The translations under genes and the position numbers were made by a program. A stretch of DNA of 64,000 bases from contig NZ_CP118260.1 in NCBI RefSeq assembly GCF_013337045.2, positions 434,001 through 498,000 on the forward strand, written 5' to 3'. Under the pieces are notes generated by a model. That model made no database searches and had not been told where the DNA came from. It was given only the letters and a program-made list of their open reading frames with translations. The stretch comes from Agrobacterium vitis (GTDB taxonomy: Bacteria > Pseudomonadota > Alphaproteobacteria > Rhizobiales > Rhizobiaceae). Within the stretch, counting starts at the first letter, position 1. Each line of letters opens with the position of its first letter. This document shows, in pieces, positions 1 through 37,324 of the stretch.

Positions 1-260
1 ATGAAGCGCAGTGTTTCAACGGTGGCTTTCACCTTGAAGTCTATGGGTATTTCACGACCCTTGCCGTCGTTGACTCTGTTGGCGGTGAAATAACTTGTCT
101 GCGAGAGAAAATAAAATCCCTCAAATGGAGGAATGGCACCCGCATAAAATTGTGAAGCGCCCGGCGCATATTGCGTATTGCTGTTTTCGGCTGCGTTTGC
201 CACGGTCATACAGTTGATGAGTAAAAGTGCTGTCCCCAGCAGCGTCCTTGCTCTTTTCAT
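1..260 (-). CDS. Outer-membrane transporter-like protein, N-terminal part (partial)
   Basis: The reading frame opens at an ATG (258-260) and runs off the left end of the window, so only about 86 residues are visible. The first 23 or so residues form a classical signal peptide (MKRARTLLGTALL, then a hydrophobic core ending ANA), so the product is exported. The mature start (YAPGASQFYAGAIPPFEGFY) resembles the SphA / phenol-degradation 'meta' family of predicted outer-membrane channel proteins; this family call is from memory of its N-terminal pattern. A strong ribosome-binding site, GAGGAG, lies just upstream of the ATG. The rest of the gene is outside the window, so function is inferred only from this segment. 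Confidence 0.7.
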   Translation of the reverse strand, partial: MKRARTLLGTALLLINCMTVANAAENSNTQYAPGASQFYAGAIPPFEGFYFLSQTSYFTANRVNDGKGREIPIDFKVKATVETLRF

Positions 261-447
261 TTTTCGCTCCTCCTCTTGCGATAATTGAAAATATCCCACA
301 GGTGATCGATCACTGAATGTGATGATATTTGAATCTACTGATGTTGCTGTGTTCGGTGCAAAAACGTATTTTTAAATACTATTCACCCTTGGTGATCTGT
401 ATTTCTGTCGTTTTTTGATTGGATATAAGTCCCCAGCAATATTTTAA

Positions 448-23500: not shown

Positions 23501-23792
23501 GGCTGTTGAGGCCAGCCGGTTGCGTCTACGTCCGATCCTGATGACCTCCATGGCCTTCATCATGGGCGTCGTTCCGCTGGTCACCTCAACCGGTGCCGGG
23601 GCCGAAATGCGCGCGGCCATGGGTATTGCGGTGTTTTCCGGCATGATTGGCGTGACGTTCTTCGGCATTTTCATGACGCCGGTCTTTTACGTGCTGATCC
23701 GCAAACTGGCCGGCAATCGTCCGCTGGTGCAGCATGTCAACGATGACCATGATCAGGACAATGACAGGCCAATGCGTATGGCGGCCGAATAA
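20592..23792 (+). CDS. RND-family multidrug efflux permease (HAE1 type)
   Basis: 1066 residues, the usual size for AcrB/MexF-like pumps, from the ATG at 20592 with GGAGAGG upstream. It starts MNISRFFVDRPVFAGVLS, has 12 predicted membrane segments and two large periplasmic loops. The proton-relay region in TM4 reads GLVLAIGIVVDDAIVVVENVERN-like with the two Asp residues present. The C-terminal half repeats the fold (GLIVLVGLSAKNAILIVEFA). It exports hydrophobic or aromatic compounds using the proton gradient. Sequence style is closest to MexF-like rhizobial pumps. Which compounds it exports cannot be seen. Confidence 0.94.
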   Translation: MNISRFFVDRPVFAGVLSVLIVVAGLIGMRSLPISEYPDVVPPSIVVRATYPGANPKVIAETVATPLEEQINGVEGMLYMSSQATSDGVMTLTVTFKLGTDPDQAQQLVQNRVSQAEPRLPEEVKSLGVTTVKSSPDLMMVVNLISPDNRYDITYLRNYGVLNIKDRLARIAGVGQVQIFGSGDYSMRIWIDPQQAAEHGLAASDITTAIRAQNVQAAAGIIGGSPSLPGVDVQLNVNAQGRLQTPEDFGNIIVKSGANGQITRLRDVARVELGASDYALRSLLDSKAAVAIPVFQAPGSNAITISDEVVRTMDELQLAMPEGVKYEIVYDTTKFVRSSIEKVVDTLLEAVALVVLVVILFLQTWRASIIPLIAVPVSIIGTFAVMYAFGFSINALSLFGLVLAIGIVVDDAIVVVENVERNIENGLSPRQATYRAMKEVSGPIIAIALVLVAVFVPLAFISGLSGQFYRQFALTIAISTVISALNSLTLSPALAALLLKGHHAPKDRLTRGLDFLLGWFFRGFNRVFGAGSHAYGKSVGGLLSRKSIVMVVYLALAGATYGLFNAVPGGFVPAQDKQYLIGFAQLPDAASLDRTEDVIKRMSDIALAQPGVAHAIAFPGLSINGFTNSSNAGIVFVTLKDFDERKTPDLSGGAIAMQLNQKFSSIQDAFIAMFPPPPVQGLGTTGGFKLQLEDRAGLGYQALDEATKAVLAKAYQTPELTGLFSSFQINVPQLYADLDRAKAEQLGVSVTDVFQTLQIYLGSLYVNDFNAFGRTYSVRAQADAKFRATSDNIGQLKVRSASGQMIPLSALLRVDPTTGPERTNRYNGFLAADINGGPAPGFSSGQAQAAIEKITADVLPKGIGYEWTDLTYQQILAGSSGFLVFPLALLLVYLVLAAQYESLTLPLAIIMIVPMGVLAALTGIWLTGGDNNIFTQIGLIVLVGLSAKNAILIVEFARELEFEGRTPVQAAVEASRLRLRPILMTSMAFIMGVVPLVTSTGAGAEMRAAMGIAVFSGMIGVTFFGIFMTPVFYVLIRKLAGNRPLVQHVNDDHDQDNDRPMRMAAE

Positions 23793-23902: not shown

Positions 23903-24859
23903 TTAGCCGGAAACCATGTCATGCTCCCTGTCCCGGTCGGGTTCCACTTTTCCCTGGCAAACCCTCGCTGCTGCCTCGTGCATCTGGGATCGGAACCAGA
24001 CCAGTGCGGGATCGCGAGTGCGATAGCTATGCCATTGAAGGCACTGTTGTAATGGTGGCAGAGGGAAAGGCGGGTCCATGATGCGGATACCGCCCAGATT
24101 GAGCATGCATTCCGCCAGGCTGCGCTGAACCATGGCAATGCGTTCCGAGCCACGGATAAGGAAGGGCAGGGACGCAAAGGAAAAGGTCGAAATCTCCACC
24201 TTGATCTTCAGGCCGAGCTTGTCGCAGGCGCGCTGGGCAAAGGTCTCGCCACCATTGGGCGGCTGCATCACCACATGACCTGCGGCAAGAAAATCATTTT
24301 CCGTCATAGGCCCTTCGGCCAGCGGCCCGTCCGCATCCACCACGCAACAGATCTGGTCTTCCAGAAAAGGCTCGGATGGATGATTGGTCGAGCAAAAGTC
24401 GCTTGGCGCCACCAGAAGATCCGCTTCTCCGCGCTCAAGAAGGAGATGGGGATAGTTCTGTTGTGGCTGGAAATGGATTTGCACACCTGGGGCCAGCGCC
24501 GACACCTGTCGCAAAAACGGCGGTATGATCGTGTTGAGCGTATAGTCGGACACGATGAGGTTGATGCTGCGGGTTGATTCATGAGGAATGAAGGACGGCG
24601 TCGACACAACGGCGGCCTCGATGCGCACGATTATGTCGCGCAAGGGCAGTTCCAATGAGGCGGCGAGCGGTGACAATTCCATGGATCGCCCGACCTGAAT
24701 CAAAAGCGGATCGTCGAAATAATCGCGCAGGCGCCCAAGGGCATTGCTCATCGCCGATTGGGTGATGAACATTTCGTCTGCGGCCCGGCTGACATTGCGA
24801 ACCCTGATCAGCGTGTCGAGCGCCACCAGAAGATTAAGGTCCAGATTCTTAAAGCGCAT
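23903..24859 (-). CDS. NodD-like LysR-family transcriptional regulator
   Basis: 318 residues starting MRFKNLDLNLLVALDTLI, the characteristic beginning of the NodD branch of LysR regulators. The HTH is in RNVSRAADEMFITQSAMSNALGRLRDYF (about 20-47, shortened here). NodD-branch proteins sense flavonoids or related aromatic compounds. It is divergent from the ten-gene catabolic operon starting at 25091, with 231 bases between, so it is the probable activator of that operon. A 21-bp AT-rich palindrome at 24925 lies in the gap. No nod genes are in the window, so a role in nodulation is not implied. Confidence 0.9.
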   Translation of the reverse strand: MRFKNLDLNLLVALDTLIRVRNVSRAADEMFITQSAMSNALGRLRDYFDDPLLIQVGRSMELSPLAASLELPLRDIIVRIEAAVVSTPSFIPHESTRSINLIVSDYTLNTIIPPFLRQVSALAPGVQIHFQPQQNYPHLLLERGEADLLVAPSDFCSTNHPSEPFLEDQICCVVDADGPLAEGPMTENDFLAAGHVVMQPPNGGETFAQRACDKLGLKIKVEISTFSFASLPFLIRGSERIAMVQRSLAECMLNLGGIRIMDPPFPLPPLQQCLQWHSYRTRDPALVWFRSQMHEAAARVCQGKVEPDRDREHDMVSG

Positions 24860-24924
24860 GATTATCCCCCTCCCAAGGAATTCCTCGAATGACCAGCCAA
24901 ACTATCGGTCGATCTATCGTTTGA

Positions 24925-24945
24925 TGTATTTATTTTAAAAATACA
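24925..24945. promoter_or_regulatory. Candidate LysR operator of the catabolic operon
   Basis: TGTATTT and AAATACA separated by 7 bases form an inverted repeat of LysR-box size (a T-N11-A type centre can be drawn). A direct repeat, CTATCG, occurs just upstream at 24902 and 24914. Both are in the divergent gap between the NodD-like gene and the operon. Confidence 0.45.
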
Positions 24946-25090
24946 GATCATTCATCAATGCAATTTGTAAACGATTTTTTCTTGGGTACATCTTGGTGCC
25001 GGGAGGATTTATCGTTGCCTGGTCTTGATGCTGGCAGCGCTGGTCTCCCATCGCCTAAATCGCCCGAGGAAGCGAGTTCGAGGAGACCCG

Positions 25091-26263
25091 ATGTTCAAGT
25101 ATTTTCCGACCAATTATGTCTGGAACCTGTCTGTTGATCTATCAATCGAGATGGGTGCCCGGATGGGCGAGATCGAAGAAATGTGCGCCCCGTTGCAGGA
25201 CGCGGCCAAAGCGCCTGATGCAGCCGGCACTCAAGCGTTCCGCGAGACCTGGATCAAGATGGCGGACAAGCTGGTGTCCCTCGCCGAGGAAGACGAAGCC
25301 AAGGGCCGGTTGATTTCTGCGGGTGACAAATTGATCCGTGCCGCCAATTACATGCTGACTGCGGAACGTCTGCTGGCCCATGGTTCCGAGGGCCGGGTAG
25401 CCTTGTATCAGCGCGTTCTGGATGCGTTCGAAAAGGGCTTGAAACTGTCCGGCTCATCCTGTCGCCGGGTAGAAATTCCCTATGAGGGCAAGCATCTTTC
25501 TGCTCTTTACGTACCCGCCGAAGGCGTCGAAGGTGCCGCACCGCTTCTGGTCCAGGTCAATGGTCTCGACAGTACCAAGGAAATGAAGTTTTTGGTTGGG
25601 TTGCCGGTCTGGCTTGCCAAGCGCGGCGTCGCTTCGCTGATCGTCGATCAGCCAGGGACGGGGGAAGCCCTTCGCCTGCAAGGACTGACGGCCCGCTACG
25701 ACAGCGAGCATTGGGCAAGCCGTGTGGTCGATTGGCTGGAGGACCGGCCGGATATCGATGCCAAGCGGATTGGCATGGAAGGGGTGTCGCTTGGCGGTTA
25801 CTATTGTCCCCGCGCGGTCGCCTTCGAGCCGCGCTTTGCCTGCGGTGTTGCCTGGGGTGCCAATCACGATTGGCGCGATGTTCAGAAAAAGCGTCTCGCC
25901 CGTGAGGGCAATCTCCCCGTTCCGCATTACTGGGGCCACGTCATGTGGGTCTGGGGCGCCAAGGATATGGACGACTTCATGGAGATTGCTGAGAAGGTTC
26001 ATCTCAATGGCATTCTCGACCGGATTCATGCGCCTTTCCTTGTCACCCATGGTGAAAAAGACAGCCAGATTCCTCTTCAATGGGCTCATGCCACCTATGA
26101 TCAGCTGGTCAATAGTCCCAACCGCGAACTGAAGATTTTCGACGAGCGTACCGGTGGCGTCCAGCATTCCAGCTTCGACAATTCGGCAAATGCCGGTGCC
26201 TATATTGCCGATTGGGTGGCGGAGGTCCTGGGTGGACGCATCGCAGTCAGGAAAAACCCATGA
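25091..26263 (+). CDS. Alpha/beta hydrolase (2,6-dihydroxypseudooxynicotine hydrolase-like)
   Basis: 390 residues from the ATG at 25091, preceded by GAGGAG. An N-terminal helical cap (about 1-120) precedes an alpha/beta-hydrolase core. The triad is intact: Ser233 in GVSLGGYY, Asp324 in THGEKDSQ and His359 in VQHSSFD. The layout resembles the FrsA/DUF1100 group that contains 2,6-dihydroxypseudooxynicotine hydrolase, which cleaves a C-C bond next to a carbonyl on an aromatic substrate; that would suit a ring-fission product. It is the first gene of the catabolic operon, and its stop codon overlaps the next start (ATGA). Confidence 0.85.
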   Translation: MFKYFPTNYVWNLSVDLSIEMGARMGEIEEMCAPLQDAAKAPDAAGTQAFRETWIKMADKLVSLAEEDEAKGRLISAGDKLIRAANYMLTAERLLAHGSEGRVALYQRVLDAFEKGLKLSGSSCRRVEIPYEGKHLSALYVPAEGVEGAAPLLVQVNGLDSTKEMKFLVGLPVWLAKRGVASLIVDQPGTGEALRLQGLTARYDSEHWASRVVDWLEDRPDIDAKRIGMEGVSLGGYYCPRAVAFEPRFACGVAWGANHDWRDVQKKRLAREGNLPVPHYWGHVMWVWGAKDMDDFMEIAEKVHLNGILDRIHAPFLVTHGEKDSQIPLQWAHATYDQLVNSPNRELKIFDERTGGVQHSSFDNSANAGAYIADWVAEVLGGRIAVRKNP

Positions 26264-26940
26264 CCATTAAACTCATGATCTGTGGACGCCGTCGGCTGGG
26301 CCAAACGCTTACCGAACATCGCGCACATATGAAGGACCATCACGGCAAGCTCGTGCTGGATTATATCGCGCTTGATCCGGTGAAAGCACCGCAGCGCTAT
26401 GTTCAAAATCATGCTTTCGATGGTGTCTATTTTGGCGGTACGCCGCAGGTCAAGGCATTGTCGATTGGTCTGGATTTCGTCACCGAGGTCTGGGCTCAGG
26501 ATCTGGCAGGGTTGAAGGCGTCACGCGAGACGCCGTTCTATCTGCAATATCTACAGCCCGACGAGCCGGAAATGGTCGATGACGCCACTCTGATCGGCAC
26601 GCCTTGCTCGGAAGAAATAATCATTCCGGTGCAATCGCGCGAAGGTGCTGTGAAGGTATTCCTGGCCTGGTTTGGTGAAAAGCCGCATGCAAGCGCTGTT
26701 ACGGATGTGATCAATACGGTCTCTCACGGGTTGCTTGGATATTGCCGCAACACCCCGCTGTTTCCCGGCCCGGTCACAGCCATCGACGAATACTGGCTGC
26801 CGAATGAGGCTGCCGGTGTCGCTTTCGCAACAGCCTGCCGCGACGCCATCAGCGGACTTCGCCTCGGCGATACCGGCTTTAGCCTGACCATTGCCCGCGA
26901 ATACGTTCTCCACGCCGGTCACGTAGACCTCGCCAAATAA
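26260..26940 (+). CDS. EthD-domain protein
   Basis: 226 residues, starting at an ATG that overlaps the stop codon of the hydrolase gene. The N-terminal half (IKLMICGRRRLGQTLTEHRAHMKDHHGKL) has the dimeric ferredoxin-like EthD pattern, and a second similar half follows (VKVFLAWFGEKP). EthD-type proteins act as small oxygenases, cyclases or decarboxylases in aromatic and polyketide metabolism, and some have no known activity. Its tight coupling to the hydrolase gene supports a shared pathway step. The exact reaction cannot be assigned. Confidence 0.8.
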   Translation: MTIKLMICGRRRLGQTLTEHRAHMKDHHGKLVLDYIALDPVKAPQRYVQNHAFDGVYFGGTPQVKALSIGLDFVTEVWAQDLAGLKASRETPFYLQYLQPDEPEMVDDATLIGTPCSEEIIIPVQSREGAVKVFLAWFGEKPHASAVTDVINTVSHGLLGYCRNTPLFPGPVTAIDEYWLPNEAAGVAFATACRDAISGLRLGDTGFSLTIAREYVLHAGHVDLAK

Positions 26941-26972
26941 AAGCCAGACGTCATGAAAGAAAGGAATGTCCC

Positions 26973-27920
26973 ATGAACATCATTGGACCCGATTATCTTG
27001 TCTTTGGTGTCGATAATGTCGCCGCCAGTTGCGAGTATCTTACGGCTTTCGGCTTGAAGCCGGTTGATGTGACGGATGCCGGTGGGCTGTTCGAAGCTTT
27101 GGACGGCACGGGCGTTATCGTTCGCCATAAGTCCGATCCGTCCCTTCCGCCGCCGTTGCCGACCTCGAACATGTTGCGCCAGCAGGTATATGGGGTGCGC
27201 ACAGCCGAAGATCTGGATGCGATCGAAGCAGAGTTGTCCAAGGACCGCCGCGTCACGCGACTGTCCAACGGGTCGATCGAAGTGAAGGATAGTCATGGCT
27301 TCGAGCTCAAGTTCCAGGTGTCGATCCGCCGGAAACTCGACATGCCAGCCGAAAAGATCAACGCGCCCGGCGCACCCGCCCAGCGCAAACCGAATGAAAT
27401 CGGCGTTTGGGAAGACATGCCGGCACTGCCACGGTCGCTCAGCCATGTGGTGTTGTTCGTACCCGACATCCAGGTCGCAACCGAGTTTTATTGTGATCGC
27501 CTCGGCTTCGTCGTCACCGATACATTGAGCGGAGCAGGTCCGTTCCTGCGGCCCAAGGCCAATGACGATCATCACACACTCTTCTTCATTCGCACGCCGG
27601 ATTACATGAAAGGCTGTGAGCATCTTGCCTTCCATATGGGTGGCCCGACGGAGTTGATGGTTGCGGGAACGCGCTTTGTCAAAAAGGGCTATCAGAGTTT
27701 CTGGGGGCCTGGCCGCCACAAGTTCGGATCGAACTGGTTCTGGTATTTCAACAGCCCCCTTGGCTGTCACTTCGAATACGACGCCGACATGGACAAGCAC
27801 GACGATACATGGGTGGGCCGCGACGTGCCGATCAGTGCCGAGGCGTCTCAGCTCTTCCTGTTCGAAATGCGCGAGAAGTGGATGCCCGGTGGCGGTCCGC
27901 CTCCCGGTGCCAAGTCCTGA
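26973..27920 (+). CDS. Extradiol ring-cleavage dioxygenase (VOC superfamily)
   Basis: 315 residues with two vicinal-oxygen-chelate modules, about 1-115 and 145-280. The second module has a metal triad of the extradiol type: His in LSHVVLF, His in EHLAFHM, and Glu in GCHFEYDADMD. Such enzymes cleave catechol-type rings next to the hydroxyls using Fe(II). It follows the EthD gene by 32 bases and precedes a Rieske protein and an FAD monooxygenase, which together would hydroxylate then open a ring. By layout it is the counterpart of FdeC in the naringenin cluster of Herbaspirillum, a comparison made from memory. Confidence 0.85.
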   Translation: MNIIGPDYLVFGVDNVAASCEYLTAFGLKPVDVTDAGGLFEALDGTGVIVRHKSDPSLPPPLPTSNMLRQQVYGVRTAEDLDAIEAELSKDRRVTRLSNGSIEVKDSHGFELKFQVSIRRKLDMPAEKINAPGAPAQRKPNEIGVWEDMPALPRSLSHVVLFVPDIQVATEFYCDRLGFVVTDTLSGAGPFLRPKANDDHHTLFFIRTPDYMKGCEHLAFHMGGPTELMVAGTRFVKKGYQSFWGPGRHKFGSNWFWYFNSPLGCHFEYDADMDKHDDTWVGRDVPISAEASQLFLFEMREKWMPGGGPPPGAKS

Positions 27921-27937
27921 CGTGATGGAAAGAGGCC

Positions 27938-28297
27938 ATGTCATCCCGACAATTCCTCTGCCGACAGGACGCCGTTGGCGAGGGTGAGGCTAAAGGTTTC
28001 GGCCCGCTTGAAGGCTTCCGTCGCAAGATCATCGTGGTCAGACGCGACGGCAAGCTCCATGCCTGGCTCGATGCTTGCCCGCATTATTCCAGTGGAACGC
28101 CGATGGCCTGGAAGACGGATGCTTATTTCAACGGCGAGAAAACGCATCTCGCCTGCCATTCCCATGGCGCCTTGTTCGATTTGGAGACGGGAGAATGTGT
28201 GCTTGGCCCCTGCCTGGGGCAAGGACTGACACGGGTGGATATTGCAGTGGGTGAGGAAGGCGAGGTTTTCGCTTTGGTAACTGCGGAGGAGGAGTGA
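27938..28297 (+). CDS. Rieske [2Fe-2S] ferredoxin-like protein
   Basis: 119 residues. The two cluster motifs are present: CPH in DACPHYSSGTPM and CHSH in LACHSHGALFD, with the usual 25-30 residue spacing. The short length and single domain mark it as a soluble electron carrier rather than an oxygenase alpha subunit. It probably passes electrons to an oxygenase in the same operon, or keeps the extradiol iron reduced. The gene sits 17 bases after the dioxygenase gene, and its TGA is 2 bases before the monooxygenase ATG. Confidence 0.88.
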   Translation: MSSRQFLCRQDAVGEGEAKGFGPLEGFRRKIIVVRRDGKLHAWLDACPHYSSGTPMAWKTDAYFNGEKTHLACHSHGALFDLETGECVLGPCLGQGLTRVDIAVGEEGEVFALVTAEEE

Positions 28298-28299
28298 AC

Positions 28300-29430
28300 A
28301 TGAATTCGGGTATCAAGAAGATCCTGATTATCGGCGGTGGATTTTCGGGAATGACGGCGGCACTTCAGCTGTCGCGAGAGGGGTTTGAGGTCGATCTCGT
28401 GGAGATCGATGCAGGATGGCGCTCCTATGGGGCAGGCATCAGCCTGCACGGCTCGACGCTCAGGGTGCTGCGCCAACTCGGCCTCCTGGATCGCTTCATG
28501 GAGGAGGGTTATGCCAGTGACGGCGTGCAATTGCGCGGGCCTGATGATGCCGTGCTCTTTACACTGCCAACCCCCCGGGTGGCTGGCGACGATATTCCCG
28601 GTGGCGGCGGCATCATGCGCCCGGCGCTTGCCAAAATCCTGTCAGAGGCTGTGCGGGCTTCAACAGCCAAGATTCGCCTGGGCGTGACATTTACCGATAT
28701 CGTCCAGAGCGAAGACGGAGCACAGGTCAGCTTTAGCGACGGCAGTTCAGACCGATTCGATCTTGTCGTTGGGGCGGACGGGCTGTTTTCCGCTGTTCGT
28801 TCCAAAACCTTTCCCCATGCGCCAAAGCCCCGTTTCATCGGCCAGTCGGTCTGGCGCGCCGTTTTGCCAAGACCGGAGGAACTGGAAACCATCACGATGT
28901 GGATGGGTCCGAAACTCAAGGTCGGTTTGAATGGCGTCAACAAAAGCCAGGCCTATCTGTTCCTGACCGAAGATCGCCCCACCAATGATTTCGTGGCTCC
29001 GGAACTGTTCGTCGAGACCCTGCGCGGCTTGCTGGAGCGTTTTGCCTCGCCGATCATCCGAGGAATTGCTGCGCAATTGTCAGCTGAGCACAAGATCATT
29101 TACCGGCCACTGGAACAGATGTTGTTGCCCCGTCCATGGTTTCAGGGGCGGGTGGTTCTGATCGGCGACGCCGTTCACGCCACGACACCGCATCTGGCCG
29201 CCGGTGCCTGTATCGGTATCGAGGATGCCATGGTGCTGGCCGAGGAACTGGTGAAGGGCAGCGATATCGATGGTGCGCTTGCCACTTTCGAGGCACGGCG
29301 CTGGGAGCGGTGTCGGATGGTGGTCGAGAACTCGGGTCGTCTGGCCGATATCGAGATCCATGGCGGCAGCCGTGAAGAGCATGCCTCGATCATGAAAGTT
29401 TCGATGAAAACCCTGGCGGAAGCGATCTGA
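28300..29430 (+). CDS. FAD-dependent aromatic monooxygenase
   Basis: 376 residues from the ATG at 28300, with GGAGGAG upstream. It belongs to the class A flavin hydroxylases (salicylate- or p-hydroxybenzoate-hydroxylase type). The dinucleotide motif IIGGGFSGM (10-18), the DLVVGADGLFSAVRS stretch and the GDAVHATTPHLAAGACIGIEDA motif are all present. Such enzymes add a hydroxyl group to a phenolic ring using NAD(P)H and oxygen. In this operon it would prepare the ring for the extradiol dioxygenase, as FdeE does with naringenin in Herbaspirillum. The actual substrate is not visible. Confidence 0.9.
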   Translation: MNSGIKKILIIGGGFSGMTAALQLSREGFEVDLVEIDAGWRSYGAGISLHGSTLRVLRQLGLLDRFMEEGYASDGVQLRGPDDAVLFTLPTPRVAGDDIPGGGGIMRPALAKILSEAVRASTAKIRLGVTFTDIVQSEDGAQVSFSDGSSDRFDLVVGADGLFSAVRSKTFPHAPKPRFIGQSVWRAVLPRPEELETITMWMGPKLKVGLNGVNKSQAYLFLTEDRPTNDFVAPELFVETLRGLLERFASPIIRGIAAQLSAEHKIIYRPLEQMLLPRPWFQGRVVLIGDAVHATTPHLAAGACIGIEDAMVLAEELVKGSDIDGALATFEARRWERCRMVVENSGRLADIEIHGGSREEHASIMKVSMKTLAEAI

Positions 29431-29566
29431 CCTCGGGGATTATCGAGCATGGTAGTCAATACTAAAATTAATTAAATAGTTGATTTTATGTAATTATTTT
29501 CGACGGCGTTCCGATTGGGAGATCGGACGCGTTTGTCGGCGCATGAAAACAACCGGAGGAGATGGA

Positions 29567-30685
29567 ATGTCAGGACAGAAATTTGGAGTGGCCGGGTCGA
29601 TTGCGCTCGTCATCGGTCACTTCTCGGGCATGCTTGACTTGATTGCTCTTCCCGTCTGGGTTGGTGCGCTTGTCGAACGCTTCGGGTTCAGCCCGCAGCA
29701 GGCGGGCGGTATCGTCACCTTGTTCCTGGTCGGTGCAGTGGTTGCGAGCCTTATTGTCGCGCCTCGTTTCAACCAGATGAACCAAAGGCTCTGGGCCTCC
29801 ATGGGTTTTGCCGTTGCCGCTGCCGCTTTTTGGGGCGCATCGAGACAGACGGCTTTTGTGCCGCTTGCGCTTTTGCATCTGACCGCCGGTGTCGCGGTCG
29901 GCACGGCCCTTTCGATGGTGCATGGAACTATAGGGCAAGCGGCCAATCCGCACCGGCTATACGCCATGGCTGGCATAGCGCTTGGGCTTTTCGCCATTGT
30001 TTTGCTGGCAGCCATACCGCAGCTGTTGATCGTCTATGGTGGCTCTGTTCTTTTCTATGTATTCACCGGCATCATGGTGATTGCCGCCCTCAGCTGTGCG
30101 TTTCTGTTTCGCAATCCCGTCCATGCCGTTGTGCCAGAAAAAAAGCCCTTTAGCCGGGCAATGTGGTTCACAATCTTTGGCATCAGCATTCTGACCTTCA
30201 ACCAGTCCATGGTGTTTTCCTTCGTCGAAGTCATCGGTAAATCGCGCGGGTTTTCCGCAGAGAGCGTGCTGGCCGTTCTCATCGCGCTGGGCTTCGTCAA
30301 TTTCATATTGCCATCTCCGCTGGCTGCTTTTTTGCAGACGCGCGTCTCCGCCACGACCGTGACCCAGATTGGACCGGCGGTACAGGTCATCCTGGCGATC
30401 ATCGTGACCTCGGTGACCATTTTTCCGGTCTGGGCGGTTGCGGCCTCCCTGTTTGTCTCCGTGCAGATCTTCACCCATAACTTCGCGTTCGGCCGCCTTG
30501 CAAAACTCGATCCGACCGGACGTGCCGTTGCAGCGACCCCAGCGATGCTGATGGTGGGTGCCGCACTTGGGCCGATTGTCGGCGGTGCATTGGGTGAAAA
30601 TTTTGGCTTCGCGGCGCTGGGCGTGACGGCCGTGGCGGTCGGCGCTGCATCTATCGGCTTCTTTACCAAGGCGAAAACAGCATGA
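29567..30685 (+). CDS. MFS transporter
   Basis: 372 residues from the ATG at 29567, which follows GGAGGAGATG; an upstream in-frame ATG lacks a good site. The chain is almost wholly hydrophobic with about 11-12 membrane segments, and it starts GSIALVIGHFSGMLDLIALPVWVG. No binding-site motif identifies the substrate. As a gene within the aromatic catabolic operon it probably imports the substrate or exports an intermediate. It overlaps the next start by 4 bases (ATGA). A 136-base gap precedes it, so a secondary promoter is possible. Confidence 0.85.
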   Translation: MSGQKFGVAGSIALVIGHFSGMLDLIALPVWVGALVERFGFSPQQAGGIVTLFLVGAVVASLIVAPRFNQMNQRLWASMGFAVAAAAFWGASRQTAFVPLALLHLTAGVAVGTALSMVHGTIGQAANPHRLYAMAGIALGLFAIVLLAAIPQLLIVYGGSVLFYVFTGIMVIAALSCAFLFRNPVHAVVPEKKPFSRAMWFTIFGISILTFNQSMVFSFVEVIGKSRGFSAESVLAVLIALGFVNFILPSPLAAFLQTRVSATTVTQIGPAVQVILAIIVTSVTIFPVWAVAASLFVSVQIFTHNFAFGRLAKLDPTGRAVAATPAMLMVGAALGPIVGGALGENFGFAALGVTAVAVGAASIGFFTKAKTA

Positions 30686-31263
30686 CACAATTTCCTGACA
30701 TTACCCGTATCGTCACCGGCCATGCGAGCGATGGCCGCTCCATCCTCAGCGAAGTCGGACCTTTGCCCAAAGTGGTTGAAATCAATGCCATTCCCGGCAC
30801 CATGTTTCACGAAGTGTGGGAGACTGGCGAAAGCCCTGCGCGGATCGATAATGGTGCCGATCCAACCCTCGGGCCTCTTATCCTTCCCCCTCCAGCTGGC
30901 GGAACGCGCATCCGTTTTGTCGATATTCCGCCGGATACCGAGGATTTTTTGAAAACCGGTGCAGAGCGAATGAATGTGGCCTTCGAGCAATTGGGCGACA
31001 CAGCTGCATCGACGGTGGAGGAGCATTCCCCGCATCCGCTGATGCATCGCACGGAATCCGTTGATTACGGCGTTGTCATTGAAGGCGAGATGACCCTGGT
31101 CCTTGATGATGGTGAGGTGCTGTTAAAGCAAGGTTCCGTCGTTATCCAGCGCGGCACCAACCATGCCTGGGCCAATCGGTCCGGCAAGACGTGCCGTATG
31201 CTCTTCATCCTTGTCGCAGGGGTCTACGATCCCGCCATCACCGCAAGCCTTGCCGGACGATGA
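30682..31263 (+). CDS. Cupin-domain protein
   Basis: 193 residues, translationally coupled to the MFS gene. The C-terminal cupin barrel shows motif 1 (MHRTESVDYGVVIEGEMTL-like) and motif 2 (GSVVIQRGTNHAWANRSG). The His and Glu positions fit metal binding. The first 90 residues are an extension with no recognisable domain. Small cupins in such operons include isomerases, dioxygenases and regulators of unknown chemistry. It is too short to be a bicupin gentisate dioxygenase. Confidence 0.82.
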   Translation: MTQFPDITRIVTGHASDGRSILSEVGPLPKVVEINAIPGTMFHEVWETGESPARIDNGADPTLGPLILPPPAGGTRIRFVDIPPDTEDFLKTGAERMNVAFEQLGDTAASTVEEHSPHPLMHRTESVDYGVVIEGEMTLVLDDGEVLLKQGSVVIQRGTNHAWANRSGKTCRMLFILVAGVYDPAITASLAGR

Positions 31264-31302
31264 TAGCCGGGTGCCACCAATAACAGCAGGAATGAGGTCA
31301 TC

Positions 31303-32280
31303 ATGAAGTTTGCAACCTATCACGATGGAAGCCGCGACGGCCAACTCTGGATCGTTTCGCGTGATTTGAAGCGGGCAGTTCCGGCAACCGGCATTGCGTT
31401 GTCCCTGCTTGCCGCGCTGGAAGATTGGGATGCCTTAGCTCCCCGCCTTCTCGAACTGTATGAACGGCTCAATGCAGGAGATGAACCCTTTGCCACCAGC
31501 TTCCAGCCGGAACGGTGTCTGGCGCCCTTGCCGCGGGCACCACAATGGCTGGATGCCTCCGCCTTCCTCAACCATGGCCGGTTGATGGATAAAGCTTTCG
31601 ACAATCCGATCAACCCGGATTTTGAGACGGTACCCTTGATCTATCAGGGGGCAAGCGATGATTTTCGCGGTCCGCTGGCAGGCGTGGAGTTTCTTGACGA
31701 CGCGCTGCTGATCGATATGGAAGGCGAGTTCGGCGTTATTCTTGCCGATGTGCCGATGGGCGTGACACCGGAAAATGCCATCGATCACGTCCGTCTGCTG
31801 GTACAGATCAACGACTGGTCGCTGCGCGCTCTTGGGCCGCGCGAAATGCGGGCGGGTTTCGGGTTTCTCCAGGCCAAACCATCGACGGCCTTTGCACCGG
31901 TCGCCATCACGCCGGACGAGATCGGGCCGCATTGGTCCAACGGTCGAGTTGGCCTGTCGTTGCATGTGGCGATCAACGGGCGGCGGGTTGGTGATGCGCA
32001 TGGAAGCGAGATGCATTTTTCCTTCGGGGAATTGATCGCTCATTGCGCCCGCAGCCGGCGTTTATCAGCTGGAACCATTCTGGGTTCCGGCACGGTGTCC
32101 AATGCAGACCGTGCCGCCGGTTCATCCTGCATTTCCGAAATCCGGGTGATCGAGCTTCTGGATGAAGGCAAGGCGCGGACACCTTTTCTGACCTGGGGTG
32201 ACCAGGTACGGATGGAGGCGCGGCTGCCGGATGGGACAACGCCTTTCGGGGTGATCGATCAGGCGGTGGTGAAGGCCTGA
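31303..32280 (+). CDS. Fumarylacetoacetate hydrolase family protein
   Basis: 325 residues, a full-length FAH-fold protein. The metal-binding Glu/Asp pattern is seen in LIDMEGEFGVILADV and in VQINDWSLR, and the conserved GAGTIL-like GTILGSGTVSN segment is near the C-terminus. Such enzymes hydrolyse or hydrate acylpyruvates left after ring fission, yielding central metabolites. It starts with its own ATG 39 bases after the cupin gene and its stop overlaps the next ATG (TGATG). It suits a late step in the pathway. Confidence 0.88.
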   Translation: MKFATYHDGSRDGQLWIVSRDLKRAVPATGIALSLLAALEDWDALAPRLLELYERLNAGDEPFATSFQPERCLAPLPRAPQWLDASAFLNHGRLMDKAFDNPINPDFETVPLIYQGASDDFRGPLAGVEFLDDALLIDMEGEFGVILADVPMGVTPENAIDHVRLLVQINDWSLRALGPREMRAGFGFLQAKPSTAFAPVAITPDEIGPHWSNGRVGLSLHVAINGRRVGDAHGSEMHFSFGELIAHCARSRRLSAGTILGSGTVSNADRAAGSSCISEIRVIELLDEGKARTPFLTWGDQVRMEARLPDGTTPFGVIDQAVVKA

Positions 32281-33200
32281 TGCGTATTCTCGTCACCGGT
32301 GCTGATGGCTTTCTGGGGCGCGGGCTCGTGGCGCGGCTAGCATCGTCTTATGGTCAGGCAAAGCGGATCGTTGCCACCGACCGGGTCTTTGCCCAATCCG
32401 TCCCCGACGGGATCGAGGCCTTGGTCGGTGATCTCGGCGATTCCGGTTTTCTGCATACATTGCTGGAACCCGGTTTCGATCTTGTCTTCCATCTGGCCAG
32501 CGTTCCCGGAGGACTTGCCGAGCGCGAACAGGCGCTGGGGCATGGTGCAAACCTGCTGGCGCCGATTGCTTTGGCGCAAGGCGTGGCACTTCGCCAGCCC
32601 GGTGCCAGGCTGGTTTTTGCCTCTTCCATCGCCGTCTATGGTGCGCTTGGAGCGGCAACCGTCACGGCGCAGACGCTTGCCGCGCCGCAGCTGACCTATG
32701 GCGCCCACAAGTTGATGAGTGAAATCCTGTTGTCCGACATGACACGACGCGGTGCGCTTTCAGCCATCAGTCTGCGGTTTCCCGGCATTGTCGCACGGCC
32801 TGCGACCGATAGCGGGCATGGTTCGGCCTTTATGAGCCTGCTTTTCCACCGGATTGCTGCTGGGGAAGCCTATGGCTGTCCGGTTCCGGCCAGCAGCACC
32901 TGCTGGTGGGTGTCGCGTCAGGCGGCGGTGGATATGCTGCTGCATTCAGCTGAGCTGAAGGATAGCGCCGTAACCGTTGTCCAGCCGCCGGTGCTGTTTG
33001 CAACGGCTGGCGAGGTGGCCACGGCGGTCGCCCGTCATGTGGGTAAAACCGCAGTGGTCGAATGGGGCGAGGATGACACGCTCCGCCGCCTGTTTGGTGC
33101 CATGCCGCCACTTGATGCTGCTACGGCGTTGGCGGCGGGATTCAAGGCCGATGCCGATCTCGATGCGCTTGCCAAAGCCGCACTTTCAGGAGAGCCATGA
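32280..33200 (+). CDS. NAD-dependent epimerase/dehydratase (DenD-like extended SDR)
   Basis: 306 residues. The Rossmann motif is VTGADGFLG (5-13), the catalytic Ser is in FASSIAVYG, and YGAHK gives the Tyr and Lys. The style, including LASVPGGLAEREQ, matches the D-erythronate dehydrogenase (DenD) group, which oxidises small hydroxy acids with NAD. The start ATG overlaps the stop of the FAH gene by one base, so the two are coupled. In this context it may act on a hydroxy-acid side product of ring breakdown. It could also be unrelated to erythronate. Confidence 0.85.
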   Translation: MRILVTGADGFLGRGLVARLASSYGQAKRIVATDRVFAQSVPDGIEALVGDLGDSGFLHTLLEPGFDLVFHLASVPGGLAEREQALGHGANLLAPIALAQGVALRQPGARLVFASSIAVYGALGAATVTAQTLAAPQLTYGAHKLMSEILLSDMTRRGALSAISLRFPGIVARPATDSGHGSAFMSLLFHRIAAGEAYGCPVPASSTCWWVSRQAAVDMLLHSAELKDSAVTVVQPPVLFATAGEVATAVARHVGKTAVVEWGEDDTLRRLFGAMPPLDAATALAAGFKADADLDALAKAALSGEP

Positions 33201-33973
33201 TGAAGATTATCGATCTGTCCGTTGCTATCGAAAACGATGTTCCCGCCGATCCGCCGGGTCTTGGTCCCAAAATCACCTACACGAACCATGCGGAAGGCTC
33301 GGAAGAGGTTTTGCGCTTCTTCCCTGGCCTCGACATGGCCGATGTCCCCGGTGGGGAGGGTTGGGCCGTGGAACAGTTGAACCTGACCGCCCATGCCGGT
33401 ACGCATCTTGATGCGCCCTGGCATTTCGCATCCACGATGAATAATGGTGACCGCGCCTGGACCATTGATGAAGTGCCGCTCGATTGGTGCATCCGCCCGG
33501 GTGTGAAGCTGGATCTGCGGCATTTGCCGGATGGCTCAATCGCAACGGCAACCGATCTTCAGTCAGCCTTGGCAGTGGCCGGTCATACGCTTCAGCCTTT
33601 CGATGTGGTGCTGGTCAATACCGCTGCCGGTGCAGCCTATGGGCGACCGGATTACCTGGGCCGTGGCTGTGGCATCGGACGTGAGGCAACCCATTGGCTG
33701 ATGGCGCAAGGCGTTCATATCGCTGGAACCGACGCCTGGTCCTGGGATGCGCCCTTTCCGGTCACGGCCAAACGGTTTGCGGAAACCAGGGATGCAGGAT
33801 TGATCTGGGAAGGCCATAAAGCCGCCCGCGAAGGCATTTTCCTGCATATGGAAAAACTGACACGGCTGGAGGAATTGCCCGGCTCCGGCTTCACCGTCTC
33901 CTGCCTGCCAGTGAAGATCAAGGGCGGCTCGGCGGGCTGGTGCCGTGCCGTGGCGATTTTCCCGGAGGGTTAA
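33197..33973 (+). CDS. Cyclase-family (kynurenine-formamidase-like) hydrolase
   Basis: 258 residues, starting at an ATG that overlaps the previous stop codon and has AGGAGAG upstream. The family motif HAGTHLDAPWHF (metal-binding His and Asp) is complete. Members hydrolyse amide, ester or lactone bonds, for example isatin or formylkynurenine, and use a divalent metal. It is the last gene of the catabolic operon, ending exactly where a palindromic element starts. Lactone opening would be a reasonable role here. Confidence 0.87.
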   Translation: MMKIIDLSVAIENDVPADPPGLGPKITYTNHAEGSEEVLRFFPGLDMADVPGGEGWAVEQLNLTAHAGTHLDAPWHFASTMNNGDRAWTIDEVPLDWCIRPGVKLDLRHLPDGSIATATDLQSALAVAGHTLQPFDVVLVNTAAGAAYGRPDYLGRGCGIGREATHWLMAQGVHIAGTDAWSWDAPFPVTAKRFAETRDAGLIWEGHKAAREGIFLHMEKLTRLEELPGSGFTVSCLPVKIKGGSAGWCRAVAIFPEG

Positions 33974-34198: not shown

Positions 34199-35509
34199 CT
34201 ATTCCGGGTTTTCCAGGCTGAACATTTCGGTGCGTTCGTCATAGGCGAACAATTCGGCATAGCGCGCCCAGGAAACGATGGTCTTCAAGGTATCGTCGGC
34301 GTAGGATTCGCTCATGTAATCCTCCAGCTCGTTGCGGAACCGCGCTGCCGGTGCGGTGTGGCTTGGGCGTTCATCCAGAACCCGGCGGATCAGGCCCATC
34401 AGCGGCACATAGCTGACCAGATGCTCGGCAAACAGTTTCTTGCGGGCATCGGTTTCCAGATGGGCAAAGCGCGTTCCGGCCTCGGTCAGCACCAGATCGC
34501 CTTCGCTCAGATGGGCAAAGCGCAAAAGCTGGAGCGCTTCGCCAAGATGAAACAGCTCATCGGCCTCCAGTTGCAACTGTCCGGCCAGTACCGGAAGATC
34601 GGCGCGGCCATGATAGGGTGCGCCTGCGAGCGCTTCGATCAGGCCCGACAGGATATTGGTCGAAACCGGCTCCAGTACCATGCCCATGCCGGTGCCGGGA
34701 ATACCATCCATGGCGGGCAGGCGCGGTTCGGCGCGCGCTGTCATCAGCGCGTAGATGCTGTCCACGAGCTGGCGGAACACCGGGTCAAGCCGGTTGCGCG
34801 GATGCGGCAGATCGACCTTCAATTCGCGCGCTACCCGGCCTGGGTTGGAGGAAAACACCAGGATGCGGTCGCACATAAGCACCGCTTCCTCGATATTGTG
34901 GGTAACGATCAGCACGGATTTGATTGGCAGACGGCCTTCGATCCACAGATCGATCATGTCGGTGCGCAGGGTTTCGGCGGTTAGTACGTCGAGGGCGGAA
35001 AAGGGCTCATCCATTAACAGCAGATCAGGATGGACCACCAGGGCGCGGGCAAAGCCGACGCGCTGGCGCATGCCGCCGGACAGCTCTTTCGGATAGGCGT
35101 TTTCAAACCCGTCGAGGCCGATCAGGTCGATGGCGGCCAATGCAAGCGAGCGGCGCTCAGTGCGGTCGACGCCCTTGGCTTCCAGACCGAGTTCGACATT
35201 CTGAAGTACGGTCAGCCAGGGAAACAGGGCGAAGGACTGGAAGACCATCGAGATGCCGGGCGGTGGCCCATCGATTTCGGTGCCGCGATAGCGGGCGCTG
35301 CCCGAAGACGGTGACAGCAAGCCGGCAATGATGCGCAGCAACGTCGATTTTCCGGAGCCGGAGCGGCCGAGCAGGCCGACGATTTCGCCTTCCTTGATGG
35401 CGAGATCGACATTTTCGAGCACGACAACATCATTGCCGCTGGCCTTGGGAAAGGAACGGGAGACCTGGGCGATATCGATCAGCGGGGACTTCGTGATAAG
35501 ATCAAGCAT
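34199..35509 (-). CDS. NitT/TauT-type ABC ATPase with AAA-associated C-terminal domain
   Basis: 436 residues from the ATG at 35509, which has AAGGA upstream; an earlier ATG is also in frame. The N-terminal 250 residues are an ABC ATPase: Walker A GRSGSGKST, signature [15 protein letters not shown], Walker B LLMDEPFSALD. The last 150 residues (YHGRADLPVLAGQLQLEADELF onwards, shortened here) match the AAA-associated domain found on some nitrate/sulfonate-type ATPases. Its partner is the fused permease upstream. No binding protein is adjacent, so the substrate is unknown; sulfonate, nitrate or an organic anion are possible. Confidence 0.88.
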   Translation of the reverse strand: MLDLITKSPLIDIAQVSRSFPKASGNDVVVLENVDLAIKEGEIVGLLGRSGSGKSTLLRIIAGLLSPSSGSARYRGTEIDGPPPGISMVFQSFALFPWLTVLQNVELGLEAKGVDRTERRSLALAAIDLIGLDGFENAYPKELSGGMRQRVGFARALVVHPDLLLMDEPFSALDVLTAETLRTDMIDLWIEGRLPIKSVLIVTHNIEEAVLMCDRILVFSSNPGRVARELKVDLPHPRNRLDPVFRQLVDSIYALMTARAEPRLPAMDGIPGTGMGMVLEPVSTNILSGLIEALAGAPYHGRADLPVLAGQLQLEADELFHLGEALQLLRFAHLSEGDLVLTEAGTRFAHLETDARKKLFAEHLVSYVPLMGLIRRVLDERPSHTAPAARFRNELEDYMSESYADDTLKTIVSWARYAELFAYDERTEMFSLENPE

Positions 35510-35590
35510 GGGAACAATCCTTTTGTCGGATGACATCATGTCTGTGGTGTTTGGGAATGCCGAAACATTCGCGATTGATGGTTGATGGTA

Positions 35591-37324
35591 TCAGCCCAGG
35601 CGCAGGCGGCTTTCGCCATAGGCATAGAGCGGGCGCCAGACCAGCCGGTTGAACAGCGTCACGAAGGTACACATGACGATGATGCCGAGCACGACCCGTG
35701 GGAAATCACCTGCCGTCGTCGCATTGGCGATGTAGGAGCCAAGGCCCGGCGTGGTCAGTTGGGTGTCGCCCCAGCTTGCCACTTCTGCGACGATGCTGGC
35801 ATTCCAGGAGCCGCCCGATGCCGTGATGGCGCCGGTGATGTAATAGGGGAAGATGCCGGGCAGGATGACCTTGAACCACCAGCGCCAGCCGGTGATGTGG
35901 AAACTGCGGGCCGCTTCCTTGAGATCGCTTGGAAAGGCGCTGGCACCGGCGATCACGTTGAACAGGATGTACCATTGCGTCCCGAGGATCATTAGCGGGC
36001 TCAGCCAGATATCGGCATTGAGACCGAAATGCACGATCACCACCACGAACACCGGAAAGGCGATATTGGCAGGGAAGGCCGCCAGGAACTGGGCAAGCGG
36101 CTGGACCTTTTCCGAGAGTTTCGGACGCAGGCCGATCCACACCCCGACCGGCACCCAGACCAAGGTTGCGATGGCCATCAGCACGATGACACGCAACAGG
36201 GTAATGGAGCCGTAGAGGATAACGGTCGGTATTTCCGACCAGCCGATGCTGGCACGCAGATAATCGAAGCTGATATAGGCGGCCCATGCGGCCATGCCCG
36301 CAATGATGGCAATCCAGATCCAGTCGATGGCGCGTGATGTGGCGGGGCTGGCAACCTTGGAGCCGAGGCTTGGCAGTTTCGGCAGGCGCAGGGTCCAGAC
36401 CTGACGAGCCAGCCAGTTCAGCGGAGCGACCAGCAGGCGGGTGACGCGGGCCTTGCGAAACAGGTCGAGCATCCAGGAACTGGGAGCGACGCCCGAGGCC
36501 GTGGTTTCGAAACGAAACTTGTCAGCCCAGGCCACCAGCGGACGGAACATCAACTGGTCATACAGCAGGATAATGGCCAGCATGGCGATGACAGCATAGA
36601 ACACCGCGAGGATATCCTGTTGCTTGATGGCCAAAGCAACGTAAGAACCGATCCCCGGCAGGGTGATCGTGGTGTTGCCGACGGTAATGGCTTCAGATGC
36701 GACCACGAAGAACCAGCCGCCGGACATCGACATCATGGTGTTCCAGACCAGGCCAGGCATGGCAAAGGGCACGTCAAGCCGCCAGAAGCGCTGCCAGCCG
36801 CTCAGCTGGAAGCTACGGGTGGCTTCTTCCAGATCCTTCGGCTGGCTGCGCATCGACTGATACATGCTGAAGGTCATGTTCCAGGCCTGGCTGGTGAAGA
36901 TCGCAAACACCGATGCCAGTTCCGCACCGATGACCCGTCCGGGAAACAGGTTGAGGAAGAAGGTGACCGTAAAGGTCAGGAAGCCGAGAATCGGTACCGA
37001 TTGCAGGATGTCGAGGACCGGGATCATCACCATTTCGGCGCGGCGGCTCTTGGCGGCAACCGAAGCATAGATCAGCGTGAACACCAGCGAAAACAGGATA
37101 GCTGCCAGCATGCGTAGAATGGTGCGCAGCGCATAGATCGGCAGATTGGTGGGATCGAGCGACATCGGAGCGGCATCGAGCACCGATAGCGGAACGGTCG
37201 TCACCCGCTCACCATAGGCAAACAGCACGATGACGCCGATAATCAGTAGCAGCGCCATCAAGTCCCAATGGTTCGGAAGATGGGAGCGGCGGATGGCAAG
37301 CGGAGCGAATTTTGGATGGATCAT
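35591..37324 (-). CDS. Fused double ABC permease (NitT/TauT type)
   Basis: 577 residues, about twice the usual length. Two BPD_transp_1 domains follow one another, about 80-270 and 350-570, each with an EAA loop (SMRSQPKDLEEATRSFQLSG, and SAFPSDLKEAARSFHITG). One chain can therefore form the whole pore, with the ATPase at 34199 powering it. The sequence upstream contains GTAGTCTATTTTGG (37383-37396), whose complement has the ATAGACTA core seen at the ssu promoters, which hints at a sulfur-related substrate. The gap to the ATPase start is 81 bases. Such fused permeases are a known minority type. Confidence 0.9.
   Translation of the reverse strand: MIHPKFAPLAIRRSHLPNHWDLMALLLIIGVIVLFAYGERVTTVPLSVLDAAPMSLDPTNLPIYALRTILRMLAAILFSLVFTLIYASVAAKSRRAEMVMIPVLDILQSVPILGFLTFTVTFFLNLFPGRVIGAELASVFAIFTSQAWNMTFSMYQSMRSQPKDLEEATRSFQLSGWQRFWRLDVPFAMPGLVWNTMMSMSGGWFFVVASEAITVGNTTITLPGIGSYVALAIKQQDILAVFYAVIAMLAIILLYDQLMFRPLVAWADKFRFETTASGVAPSSWMLDLFRKARVTRLLVAPLNWLARQVWTLRLPKLPSLGSKVASPATSRAIDWIWIAIIAGMAAWAAYISFDYLRASIGWSEIPTVILYGSITLLRVIVLMAIATLVWVPVGVWIGLRPKLSEKVQPLAQFLAAFPANIAFPVFVVVIVHFGLNADIWLSPLMILGTQWYILFNVIAGASAFPSDLKEAARSFHITGWRWWFKVILPGIFPYYITGAITASGGSWNASIVAEVASWGDTQLTTPGLGSYIANATTAGDFPRVVLGIIVMCTFVTLFNRLVWRPLYAYGESRLRLG

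What the first reader, a model, noticed from the sequence alone, without database searches (positions are those of the whole stretch)
23903..33973. Ten-gene aromatic (possibly flavonoid) catabolic operon under a NodD-like regulator
Seen: a NodD-branch LysR gene is divergent from ten closely packed genes, several with ATGA overlaps: a C-C/ester hydrolase with intact triad, EthD, two-module extradiol dioxygenase with a His-His-Glu triad, Rieske ferredoxin, class A FAD hydroxylase, MFS, cupin, FAH hydrolase, SDR and a metal cyclase. Known: class A hydroxylase plus extradiol dioxygenase is a ring hydroxylation and cleavage pair, and from memory the naringenin (fde) cluster of Herbaspirillum seropedicae has this set under a LysR regulator. 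Inference: a rhizobial pathway for a flavonoid or related plant phenolic, with extra steps (EthD, cupin, DenD-like SDR, cyclase).
Basis: partly seen in the sequence, partly recalled or inferred. Interest (0 to 1): 0.8.

Follow-up and report, generated by a model that had tools for sequence, protein, structure and literature searches.

The report
Flavonoid-degradation operon in an Agrobacterium relative
This stretch is very probably a flavonoid-degrading gene set of the kind already worked out in the plant bacterium Herbaspirillum, here in what looks like a relative of the grapevine bacterium Agrobacterium vitis, with one extra enzyme gene of unknown role.

Summary
In detail: a NodD-like LysR gene (23903-24859, minus) faces ten closely packed plus-strand genes (25091-33973), three junctions being ATGA overlaps. 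In Herbaspirillum the LysR gene is followed by exactly ten genes, fdeA-J. The window holds fdeR and nine of the ten (B-J), plus an EthD gene between fdeB and fdeC; fdeG stands last. An fdeA-type orthologue lies about 24 kb away at window 1-299 (minus). FdeE (C-8 hydroxylase) is 60% identical to Herbaspirillum seropedicae FdeE, best hit both ways at genome level; FdeC is 62% and FdeB 74% identical to Herbaspirillum. The isoflavone (ifc) branch fits worse. NodA is absent from the genome (control rings), so this is no nodulator; the host looks like the Agrobacterium/Allorhizobium vitis group (inferred). The cassette is patchy: 7 of 35 other same-genus genomes. Two side results: the EthD protein has few relatives (67 others) and a predicted fold shared with, among several enzymes, bacterial chalcone isomerase; and many betaproteobacterial fdeR upstream regions carry a nod-box-like half-site, though the window's own does not. 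NodD-likeness of FdeR is already published. New member of a known kind; the substrate is inferred, not shown.

The parts
23903..24859 (-). fdeR: NodD-like LysR regulator, divergent
   Evidence: LysR domains; 71% to R. rhizoryzae, 43-46% to the LysR at the same place in Herbaspirillum and Burkholderia anthina, 31-36% to NodD-type proteins
24860..25090 (.). fdeR-fdeB intergenic region, probable promoter/operator; block 24947-24974 conserved in related cassettes; dyad GTATTT-N7-AAATAC at 24926-24944, full in L116 and L117, nearly so in L122
   Evidence: alignment, positions; nod-box profile not significant here (p=0.67)
25091..26263 (+). fdeB: alpha/beta hydrolase, C-C hydrolase type
   Evidence: 74% to Herbaspirillum AP02; solved relatives 2,6-dihydroxypseudooxynicotine hydrolase 2jbw and yellowish-green-1-type hydrolases
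26260..26940 (+). EthD-domain protein, accessory gene not in the Herbaspirillum fde loci
   Evidence: PF07110; 67 other relatives found; model pLDDT 91.6; no match in L107 or L112
26973..27920 (+). fdeC: type I extradiol (VOC) dioxygenase, A-ring cleavage
   Evidence: 62% to Herbaspirillum AP02; a 75% relative, P0064, is named 'naringenin degradation protein FdeC' by its source; His158/His221/Glu268
27938..28297 (+). fdeD: Rieske ferredoxin
   Evidence: PF00355; 42% to Herbaspirillum
28294..29430 (+). fdeE: class A FAD monooxygenase, flavonoid C-8 hydroxylase
   Evidence: 59.6% to an H. seropedicae protein taken as FdeE (P0122); best hit both ways at genome level; tree
29567..30685 (+). fdeF: MFS transporter
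   Evidence: PF07690; 47% to Herbaspirillum
30682..31263 (+). fdeH: cupin
   Evidence: 71% to Herbaspirillum; cupins IfcD1/D2 act late in the related isoflavone pathway (PMC11069340)
31303..32280 (+). fdeI: fumarylacetoacetate-hydrolase family
   Evidence: 58% to Herbaspirillum; close solved relative 3lzk
32280..33200 (+). fdeJ: NAD-dependent epimerase/dehydrogenase (SDR)
   Evidence: 39% to Herbaspirillum at the same place after fdeI
33197..33973 (+). fdeG: metal-dependent cyclase/hydrolase, moved to the 3' end
   Evidence: PF04199; 59% to Herbaspirillum, where it lies between fdeF and fdeH
1..299 (-). first part of a displaced fdeA-type outer-membrane protein (Phenol_MetA_deg); it runs out of the window to G000:C2:433370
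   Evidence: PF13557; 63-65% to the gene beside fdeR in relatives L119/L118; 32% to Herbaspirillum FdeA

Best explanation
The region is an fde-type operon for oxidative degradation of a flavonoid (most likely a flavanone such as naringenin, perhaps also related flavones or isoflavones). A flavonoid bound by FdeR turns on the divergent operon. FdeE, with FdeD as electron carrier, hydroxylates the A ring at C-8. FdeC cleaves the new catechol. FdeB, FdeI and FdeG hydrolyse the fission product and lactone and release a C4 acid. FdeH and FdeJ finish the remaining C-ring part, leaving a 4-hydroxyphenyl ketone for other pathways. FdeF and the displaced FdeA handle transport. EthD is an accessory acid-base enzyme at an unknown step. 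By homology to tested proteins: FdeR sensing, FdeE/FdeD hydroxylation, FdeC cleavage. Inferred only: the steps of FdeB, F, G, H, I, J and EthD, and the substrate in this strain.
For: In Herbaspirillum sp. AP02 (L112) fdeR is followed by ten genes: Phenol_MetA protein, hydrolase, dioxygenase, Rieske, FAD hydroxylase, MFS, cyclase, cupin, FAH, SDR. Published anchors fit this order: fdeA is first after fdeR (PMC10799723, passages); FdeC is Hsero_1005 and FdeE Hsero_1007 (PMC10755750, passages); FdeE works with Rieske carrier FdeD (PMC8552027, passages). Window identities to L112: R 43, B 74, C 62, D 42, E 59, F 47, G 59, H 71, I 58, J 39%. An H. seropedicae FdeE (P0122) finds the window gene first in the window's genome at 60%, next hit 31%; the window FdeE finds the fde locus first in the AP02 genome at 59%, next 47%. 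The FdeE tree sets the window and H. seropedicae FdeE apart from the Bradyrhizobium ifc-type protein (98/98). FdeE hydroxylates many flavonoids at C-8 (PMC11303751, passages). FdeR answers naringenin, chrysin and daidzein (PMC10799723) and pinocembrin (PMC6548992, passages).
Against: No experiment on this strain. The window's FdeR is only 43% identical to Herbaspirillum FdeR and its operator region does not match the nod-box-like site of many others, so its inducer may differ. fdeA is not in the operon, fdeG is moved and an extra EthD gene is present. FdeD, FdeF and FdeJ are weakly conserved (39-47%). Disrupting the FdeB-like hydrolase gene in the ifc cluster did not stop daidzein loss (PMC11069340). 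The ifc and fde branches share FdeC-type enzymes, so FdeC does not tell the substrate class.
Confidence: 0.85

Rival explanations
1. It is an isoflavone (ifc-type) operon: the same chemistry, but the hydroxylase is specific for isoflavones.
For: The ifc cluster is fde-like and shares a close FdeC (IfcB is 65.8% identical to FdeC) and a hydrolase similar to pseudooxynicotine hydrolase (PMC11069340).
Against: IfcA is only 36.3% identical to FdeE, while the window protein is 59.6% to FdeE and 35.8% to the presumptive IfcA of Bradyrhizobium elkanii; the cupin/FAH/SDR/cyclase block follows fde. IfcA itself was not held, so a proxy was used.
Confidence: 0.05
2. A fde-derived operon whose substrate has shifted to another flavonoid class or plant phenolic (chalcones, dihydrochalcones, flavan-3-ols, stilbenes of grapevine), with EthD as the adapting step.
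Confidence: 0.1
3. An operon for a non-flavonoid aromatic (for example a hydroxylated biphenyl, polyketide or N-heterocycle), sharing only folds with fde.
For: Class A hydroxylases, VOC dioxygenases and FAH hydrolases are widespread; solved relatives of the hydroxylase are named for nicotinate, salicylate and other substrates.
Against: Those relatives are distant, while identity to fde proteins is 39-74% for ten genes in one block, with best hits both ways for FdeE.
Confidence: 0.04

Closest known systems
fde (flavonoid degradation) operon of Herbaspirillum seropedicae SmR1, compared here through Herbaspirillum sp. AP02 (L112) and ASV7 (L107)
   Same: FdeR divergent; fdeB-J all present; order B-C-D-E-F and H-I-J kept; catalytic residues kept
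   Different: fdeA displaced about 24 kb; fdeG moved to the end; extra EthD gene between fdeB and fdeC; operator block different
Burkholderia anthina plasmid fde-type cluster (L029)
   Same: same set including an EthD gene between hydrolase and dioxygenase
   Different: EthD only 36% identical, with an N-terminal extension that looks to me like a twin-arginine leader; fdeA-type gene in place; fdeG before fdeH
Rhizobiaceae cassettes in the same genus (L116-L122) and in Rhizobium rhizoryzae (L026)
   Same: window gene order, fdeG last
   Different: no EthD in L120, L122, L026; no fdeH, I, J in the stretch held for L121; an fdeA-type gene beside fdeR in L118-L121 and L026
ifc isoflavone cluster of Variovorax sp. 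V35 and its likeness in Bradyrhizobium elkanii (L028)
   Same: class A hydroxylase, FdeC-type dioxygenase, cupin; FdeR-like LysR in L028
   Different: hydroxylase about 36% identical; other neighbouring genes
NodD / nod box of rhizobia
   Same: NodD-like regulator, divergent arrangement; flavonoid signal (known for FdeR of Herbaspirillum)
   Different: faces catabolic, not nodulation genes; the window's operator is not a recognisable nod box
fde-like cluster of Pseudomonas thivervalensis SC5 (PMC8515041, passages)
   Same: published earlier as similar to the Herbaspirillum naringenin genes, so spread of fde beyond Herbaspirillum is already in print
   Different: not compared here

Membership tests
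fde flavonoid-degradation operon | FdeE-type C-8 hydroxylase, orthologous to Herbaspirillum FdeE | tested here: met
   59.6% identity, best hit both ways at genome level, tree branch 98/98 apart from the ifc proxy
fde flavonoid-degradation operon | FdeC-type extradiol dioxygenase with 2-His-1-Glu site | tested here: met
   62% identity; His158, His221, Glu268
fde flavonoid-degradation operon | Rieske carrier fdeD next to fdeC and fdeE | tested here: met
   42% identity, same place
fde flavonoid-degradation operon | divergent FdeR, NodD-like LysR | tested here: met
   43% identity, same arrangement; tree
fde flavonoid-degradation operon | fdeA as first gene of the operon | tested here: not met
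   no such gene next to fdeR here; an orthologous gene lies about 24 kb away. The same queries found an fdeA-type gene in only 22 of 80 fde-type loci, so it is not a constant feature
fde flavonoid-degradation operon | remaining genes fdeB, F, G, H, I, J present | tested here: met
   39-74% identity, one block
fde flavonoid-degradation operon | induction by and growth on naringenin | not testable with these tools
   needs the strain
ifc isoflavone cluster | IfcA-clade hydroxylase | tested here: not met
   35.8% to a presumptive IfcA proxy (B. elkanii), on the other side of a 98/98 branch; IfcA of strain V35 itself not held, and the proxy sits on a long branch
NodD / nod-box regulation | nod-box half-site upstream of the regulated operon | tested here: not met
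   window p=0.67, L116 0.80, L117 0.46 against 60 shuffles each
bacterial chalcone isomerase (for EthD) | two ferredoxin-like domains | tested here: met
bacterial chalcone isomerase (for EthD) | detectable sequence relationship and catalytic His33 | tested here: inconclusive
   no chalcone isomerase found by profile at E<=1; EthD has an invariant His28, but a His there is recalled as common to EthD proteins and no residue alignment was made

The most novel reading that the evidence does not exclude
The nodulation switch and the flavonoid-catabolism switch are one regulatory module. FdeR and NodD are close regulators (43% identity between Herbaspirillum AP02 FdeR and S. meliloti NodD1) with the same signal class and the same divergent layout, and many fde operons carry a nod-box-like half-site in nod-box orientation. 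NodD/nod box would then have been recruited from flavonoid catabolism, or the reverse. In the window's lineage this operator has drifted, and a small EthD family, perhaps a chalcone-isomerase-like enzyme, has joined the operon to widen its substrates.
Probability: 0.25. Interest if true: 0.7.

Novelty: new member of a known kind. Interest (0 to 1): 0.42.

Why it matters
It places a nearly complete flavonoid A-ring degradation pathway in a plant-associated Rhizobiaceae lineage without NodA, where breaking down host flavonoids could feed or protect the bacterium. It also gives a concrete test of how the flavonoid sensor of nodulation relates to flavonoid catabolism, and names one accessory gene (EthD) whose part in flavonoid breakdown is open.

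Tried and rejected
ifc membership: considered because FdeC and IfcB are close; rejected on the hydroxylase. Rhizobial symbiont: rejected, NodA absent (the first search had no ringing control). RND pump and ABC transporter as parts of the system: not supported; among nine other Rhizobiaceae loci (L116-L123, L026) the RND pair is found only in L116 and L117 and the ABC pair only in L116, L117 and L122. Against this, a 68% RND relative lies about 2.4 kb beyond fdeJ in Herbaspirillum ASV7 (L107, same call), so efflux beside fde is not excluded. T-N11-A LysR boxes: 15 in the intergenic region, 15.8 expected from shuffles. Promoter and terminator scan: no more than shuffles give. Direct alignment of the window's operator with Herbaspirillum's: not significant (p 0.07, not on the block, and 0.16); of 18 such tests on nine Rhizobiaceae regions 6 gave p<=0.05, one of them (L107 with L118) outside the block. 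H. seropedicae naringenin RNA-seq paper PMC4440368: the word 'fde' does not occur. Bark-beetle paper PMC6064089: no gene cluster or fde. Original fde papers: Wassem 2017 and Marin 2016 not held; Marin 2013 was not looked up; all three are known only through citing papers. Literature on fde in Agrobacterium vitis: four papers hold the words, seen as a listing only, none about it by title. No literature search was made for EthD with fde, so I do not claim that it is unreported. The first FdeE tree (43 rows) held long spurious rows and was rebuilt with five dropped. For the nod-box count, 27 of 96 candidate loci were left out beforehand because no LysR match of at least 38% identity was found; the control set is small (17 regions, some near-duplicates, best 7.2 bits). 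Fold neighbours of EthD do not single out one function.
Full report
WHAT IS THERE. The extradiol enzyme keeps His158, His221 and Glu268, the hydrolase its Ser-Asp-His, the Rieske protein its Cys/His pairs, the hydroxylase its GxGxxG and GD motifs.

IDENTITY. The original fde papers were not held (Wassem 2017 and Marin 2016; Marin 2013 not looked up), so I rebuilt the reference from a named genome. In Herbaspirillum sp. AP02 (L112) the LysR gene is followed by exactly ten genes: Phenol_MetA outer-membrane protein, hydrolase, dioxygenase, Rieske, FAD hydroxylase, MFS, cyclase, cupin, FAH, SDR. Passages in four open papers anchor this to fdeA-J: fdeA is the first gene after fdeR and the operon is FdeR-activated (PMC10799723); FdeC is Hsero_1005 and FdeE Hsero_1007 (PMC10755750); FdeED is a flavin hydroxylase with a Rieske carrier, and FdeA resembles a phenol-degradation protein (PMC8552027); FdeE hydroxylates flavonoids at C-8 (PMC11303751). 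Letters B and F to J are assigned by position, not from a published table. The window then reads fdeR / fdeB, EthD, fdeC, fdeD, fdeE, fdeF, fdeH, fdeI, fdeJ, fdeG, with 39-74% identity to L112 for the ten shared genes.

TESTS. Proteins labelled H. seropedicae (P0122, P0126, P0127; taken as FdeE because they are 91-92% identical to the AP02 protein) are 59-60% identical to the window hydroxylase. P0122 finds the window gene first in the window's genome (60%, next 31%) and the window protein finds the fde locus first in AP02's genome (59%, next 47%). In a tree of 38 rows the window and H. seropedicae FdeE fall on the same side of a 98/98 branch, apart from the B. elkanii ifc-type protein; long branches make the place of the latter unsure (the first tree had five more rows). 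One 75% relative of FdeC, of the 120 listed, carries the name 'naringenin degradation protein FdeC'.

DISTRIBUTION. At 60 bits or more, of 80 loci: hydrolase 77, hydroxylase 76, Rieske 74, cyclase 67, FAH 63, LysR 63, MFS 60, SDR 48, cupin 46, EthD 3; hydrolase-dioxygenase-Rieske-hydroxylase in order in 66; all window genes but EthD in 32; LysR divergent and upstream of the hydrolase in 53. Fourteen of the 80 loci are shorter than 20 kb, so these are lower bounds. In a search of 60 genomes (the window's own and 59 others), 7 of 35 others of the genus have a close copy (85% or more) and 0 of 24 from other families do: patchy, as for a gained and lost trait. That fde-like clusters occur outside Herbaspirillum is already in print, for Pseudomonas thivervalensis (PMC8515041, passages).

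HOST. The contig is 1,147,840 bases, the length given for the EthD record P0241; EthD relatives at 84-88% are named Agrobacterium vitis, and P0262 (Allorhizobium sp. BGMRC 0089) lies on a contig of 487,673 bases, the length of same-genus contig G026:C33. So the host is most likely of the Agrobacterium/Allorhizobium vitis group (inference). NodA is absent; the R. etli plasmid rings as control.

REGULATOR AND OPERATOR. FdeR is NodD-like; this is published (title of Wassem 2017 seen in a reference list; paper not held). In a tree of 30 LysR rows, six NodD-type rows form one group beside the FdeR rows; NahR and LeuO lie farther off; the order among the deep FdeR rows and NodD is not resolved. I built a profile of the nod-box 3' half from 9 nodA upstream regions (2 of 11 fetched gave no box by my pattern) and scanned 69 fdeR upstream regions (27 of 96 candidates left out beforehand for lack of a LysR match of at least 38%): 45 reach p<=0.05 against 60 shuffles each, 35 beat all shuffles. 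At 8 bits or more: 38 of 69 fde regions (35 in nod-box orientation) against 0 of 17 other LysR upstream regions. Herbaspirillum has ATCAAAACAATCCATTTGATCAATAT against nod box ATCCAAACAATCAATTTTACCAATCT. The window itself fails (p=0.67), and so do L116-L121 (p 0.10 to 0.80); L122 and L026 pass weakly (p 0.016, 0.033). The window's clade has its own conserved block (24947-24974). No paper in the library holds both 'nod box' and 'FdeR'; eight hold 'NodD' and 'FdeR', seen as a listing, one of them in passages.

MECHANISM. Published steps, from a citing paper: C-8 hydroxylation by FdeE; A-ring cleavage by FdeC; [quoted passage not shown] In the sister ifc pathway the cupins IfcD1/D2 act on a pyranone intermediate (PMC11069340, three sections read), which suggests a late C-ring step for FdeH. 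A relative of FdeB cuts a C-C bond, FdeI is of the fumarylacetoacetase type, FdeG is distantly related to isatin hydrolase. The assignment of these steps in the window is inference.

VERDICT. An ordinary but well-supported member of a known operon kind, in a Rhizobiaceae host, with one accessory gene and a family-level hint that FdeR and NodD share operator design.

Noticed in passing
window 19218-23792: RND efflux pair (membrane-fusion protein and pump) directly upstream of fdeR; of nine other Rhizobiaceae loci only the two nearest keep it; a 68% relative of the pump lies beyond fdeJ in Herbaspirillum L107.
   Followed up: partly
window 34199-37324 (minus): ABC transporter ATPase and permease, convergent with the operon; kept in L116, L117 and L122.
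   Followed up: partly
L143:117-5121 (G000:C2:415116-420120), about 14-19 kb left of the window: A second aromatic cluster: FMN dehydrogenase, another VOC extradiol dioxygenase and a large FAD_binding_3 hydroxylase, with a branched-chain-type ABC permease farther on.
   Followed up: no
L123:8443-10555: In same-genus genome G029 a second FdeC-like gene (74%) divergent from an FdeR-like LysR (49%), with only a partial Rieske match and no hydrolase or FdeE match in the stretch; frames nearby look to me like transposases. Function unclear.
   Followed up: no
L027:10985-13091: Roseomonas mucosa plasmid: the hydroxylase of an fde-type cluster is annotated in two pieces on either side of an IS5 transposase.
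   Followed up: no
L028 and L027: fde/ifc-type clusters of Bradyrhizobium elkanii and Roseomonas mucosa both neighbour FCD regulator, ornithine-cyclodeaminase-like, dihydrodipicolinate-synthase-like and semialdehyde dehydrogenase genes, perhaps for the released acid.
   Followed up: no
G060:C14:47715-48824 (L137): A second FdeE-like hydroxylase (47%) in the Herbaspirillum AP02 genome, grouping with one in R. rhizoryzae.
   Followed up: partly
L029:9132-9968: Burkholderia anthina EthD starts with a leader that looks twin-arginine-like and is absent from the window's protein, hinting at export there.
   Followed up: no
69 fdeR upstream regions in fetched loci: Nod-box-like half-sites, strongest in Duganella-type, Herbaspirillum and Ralstonia loci.
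   Followed up: partly
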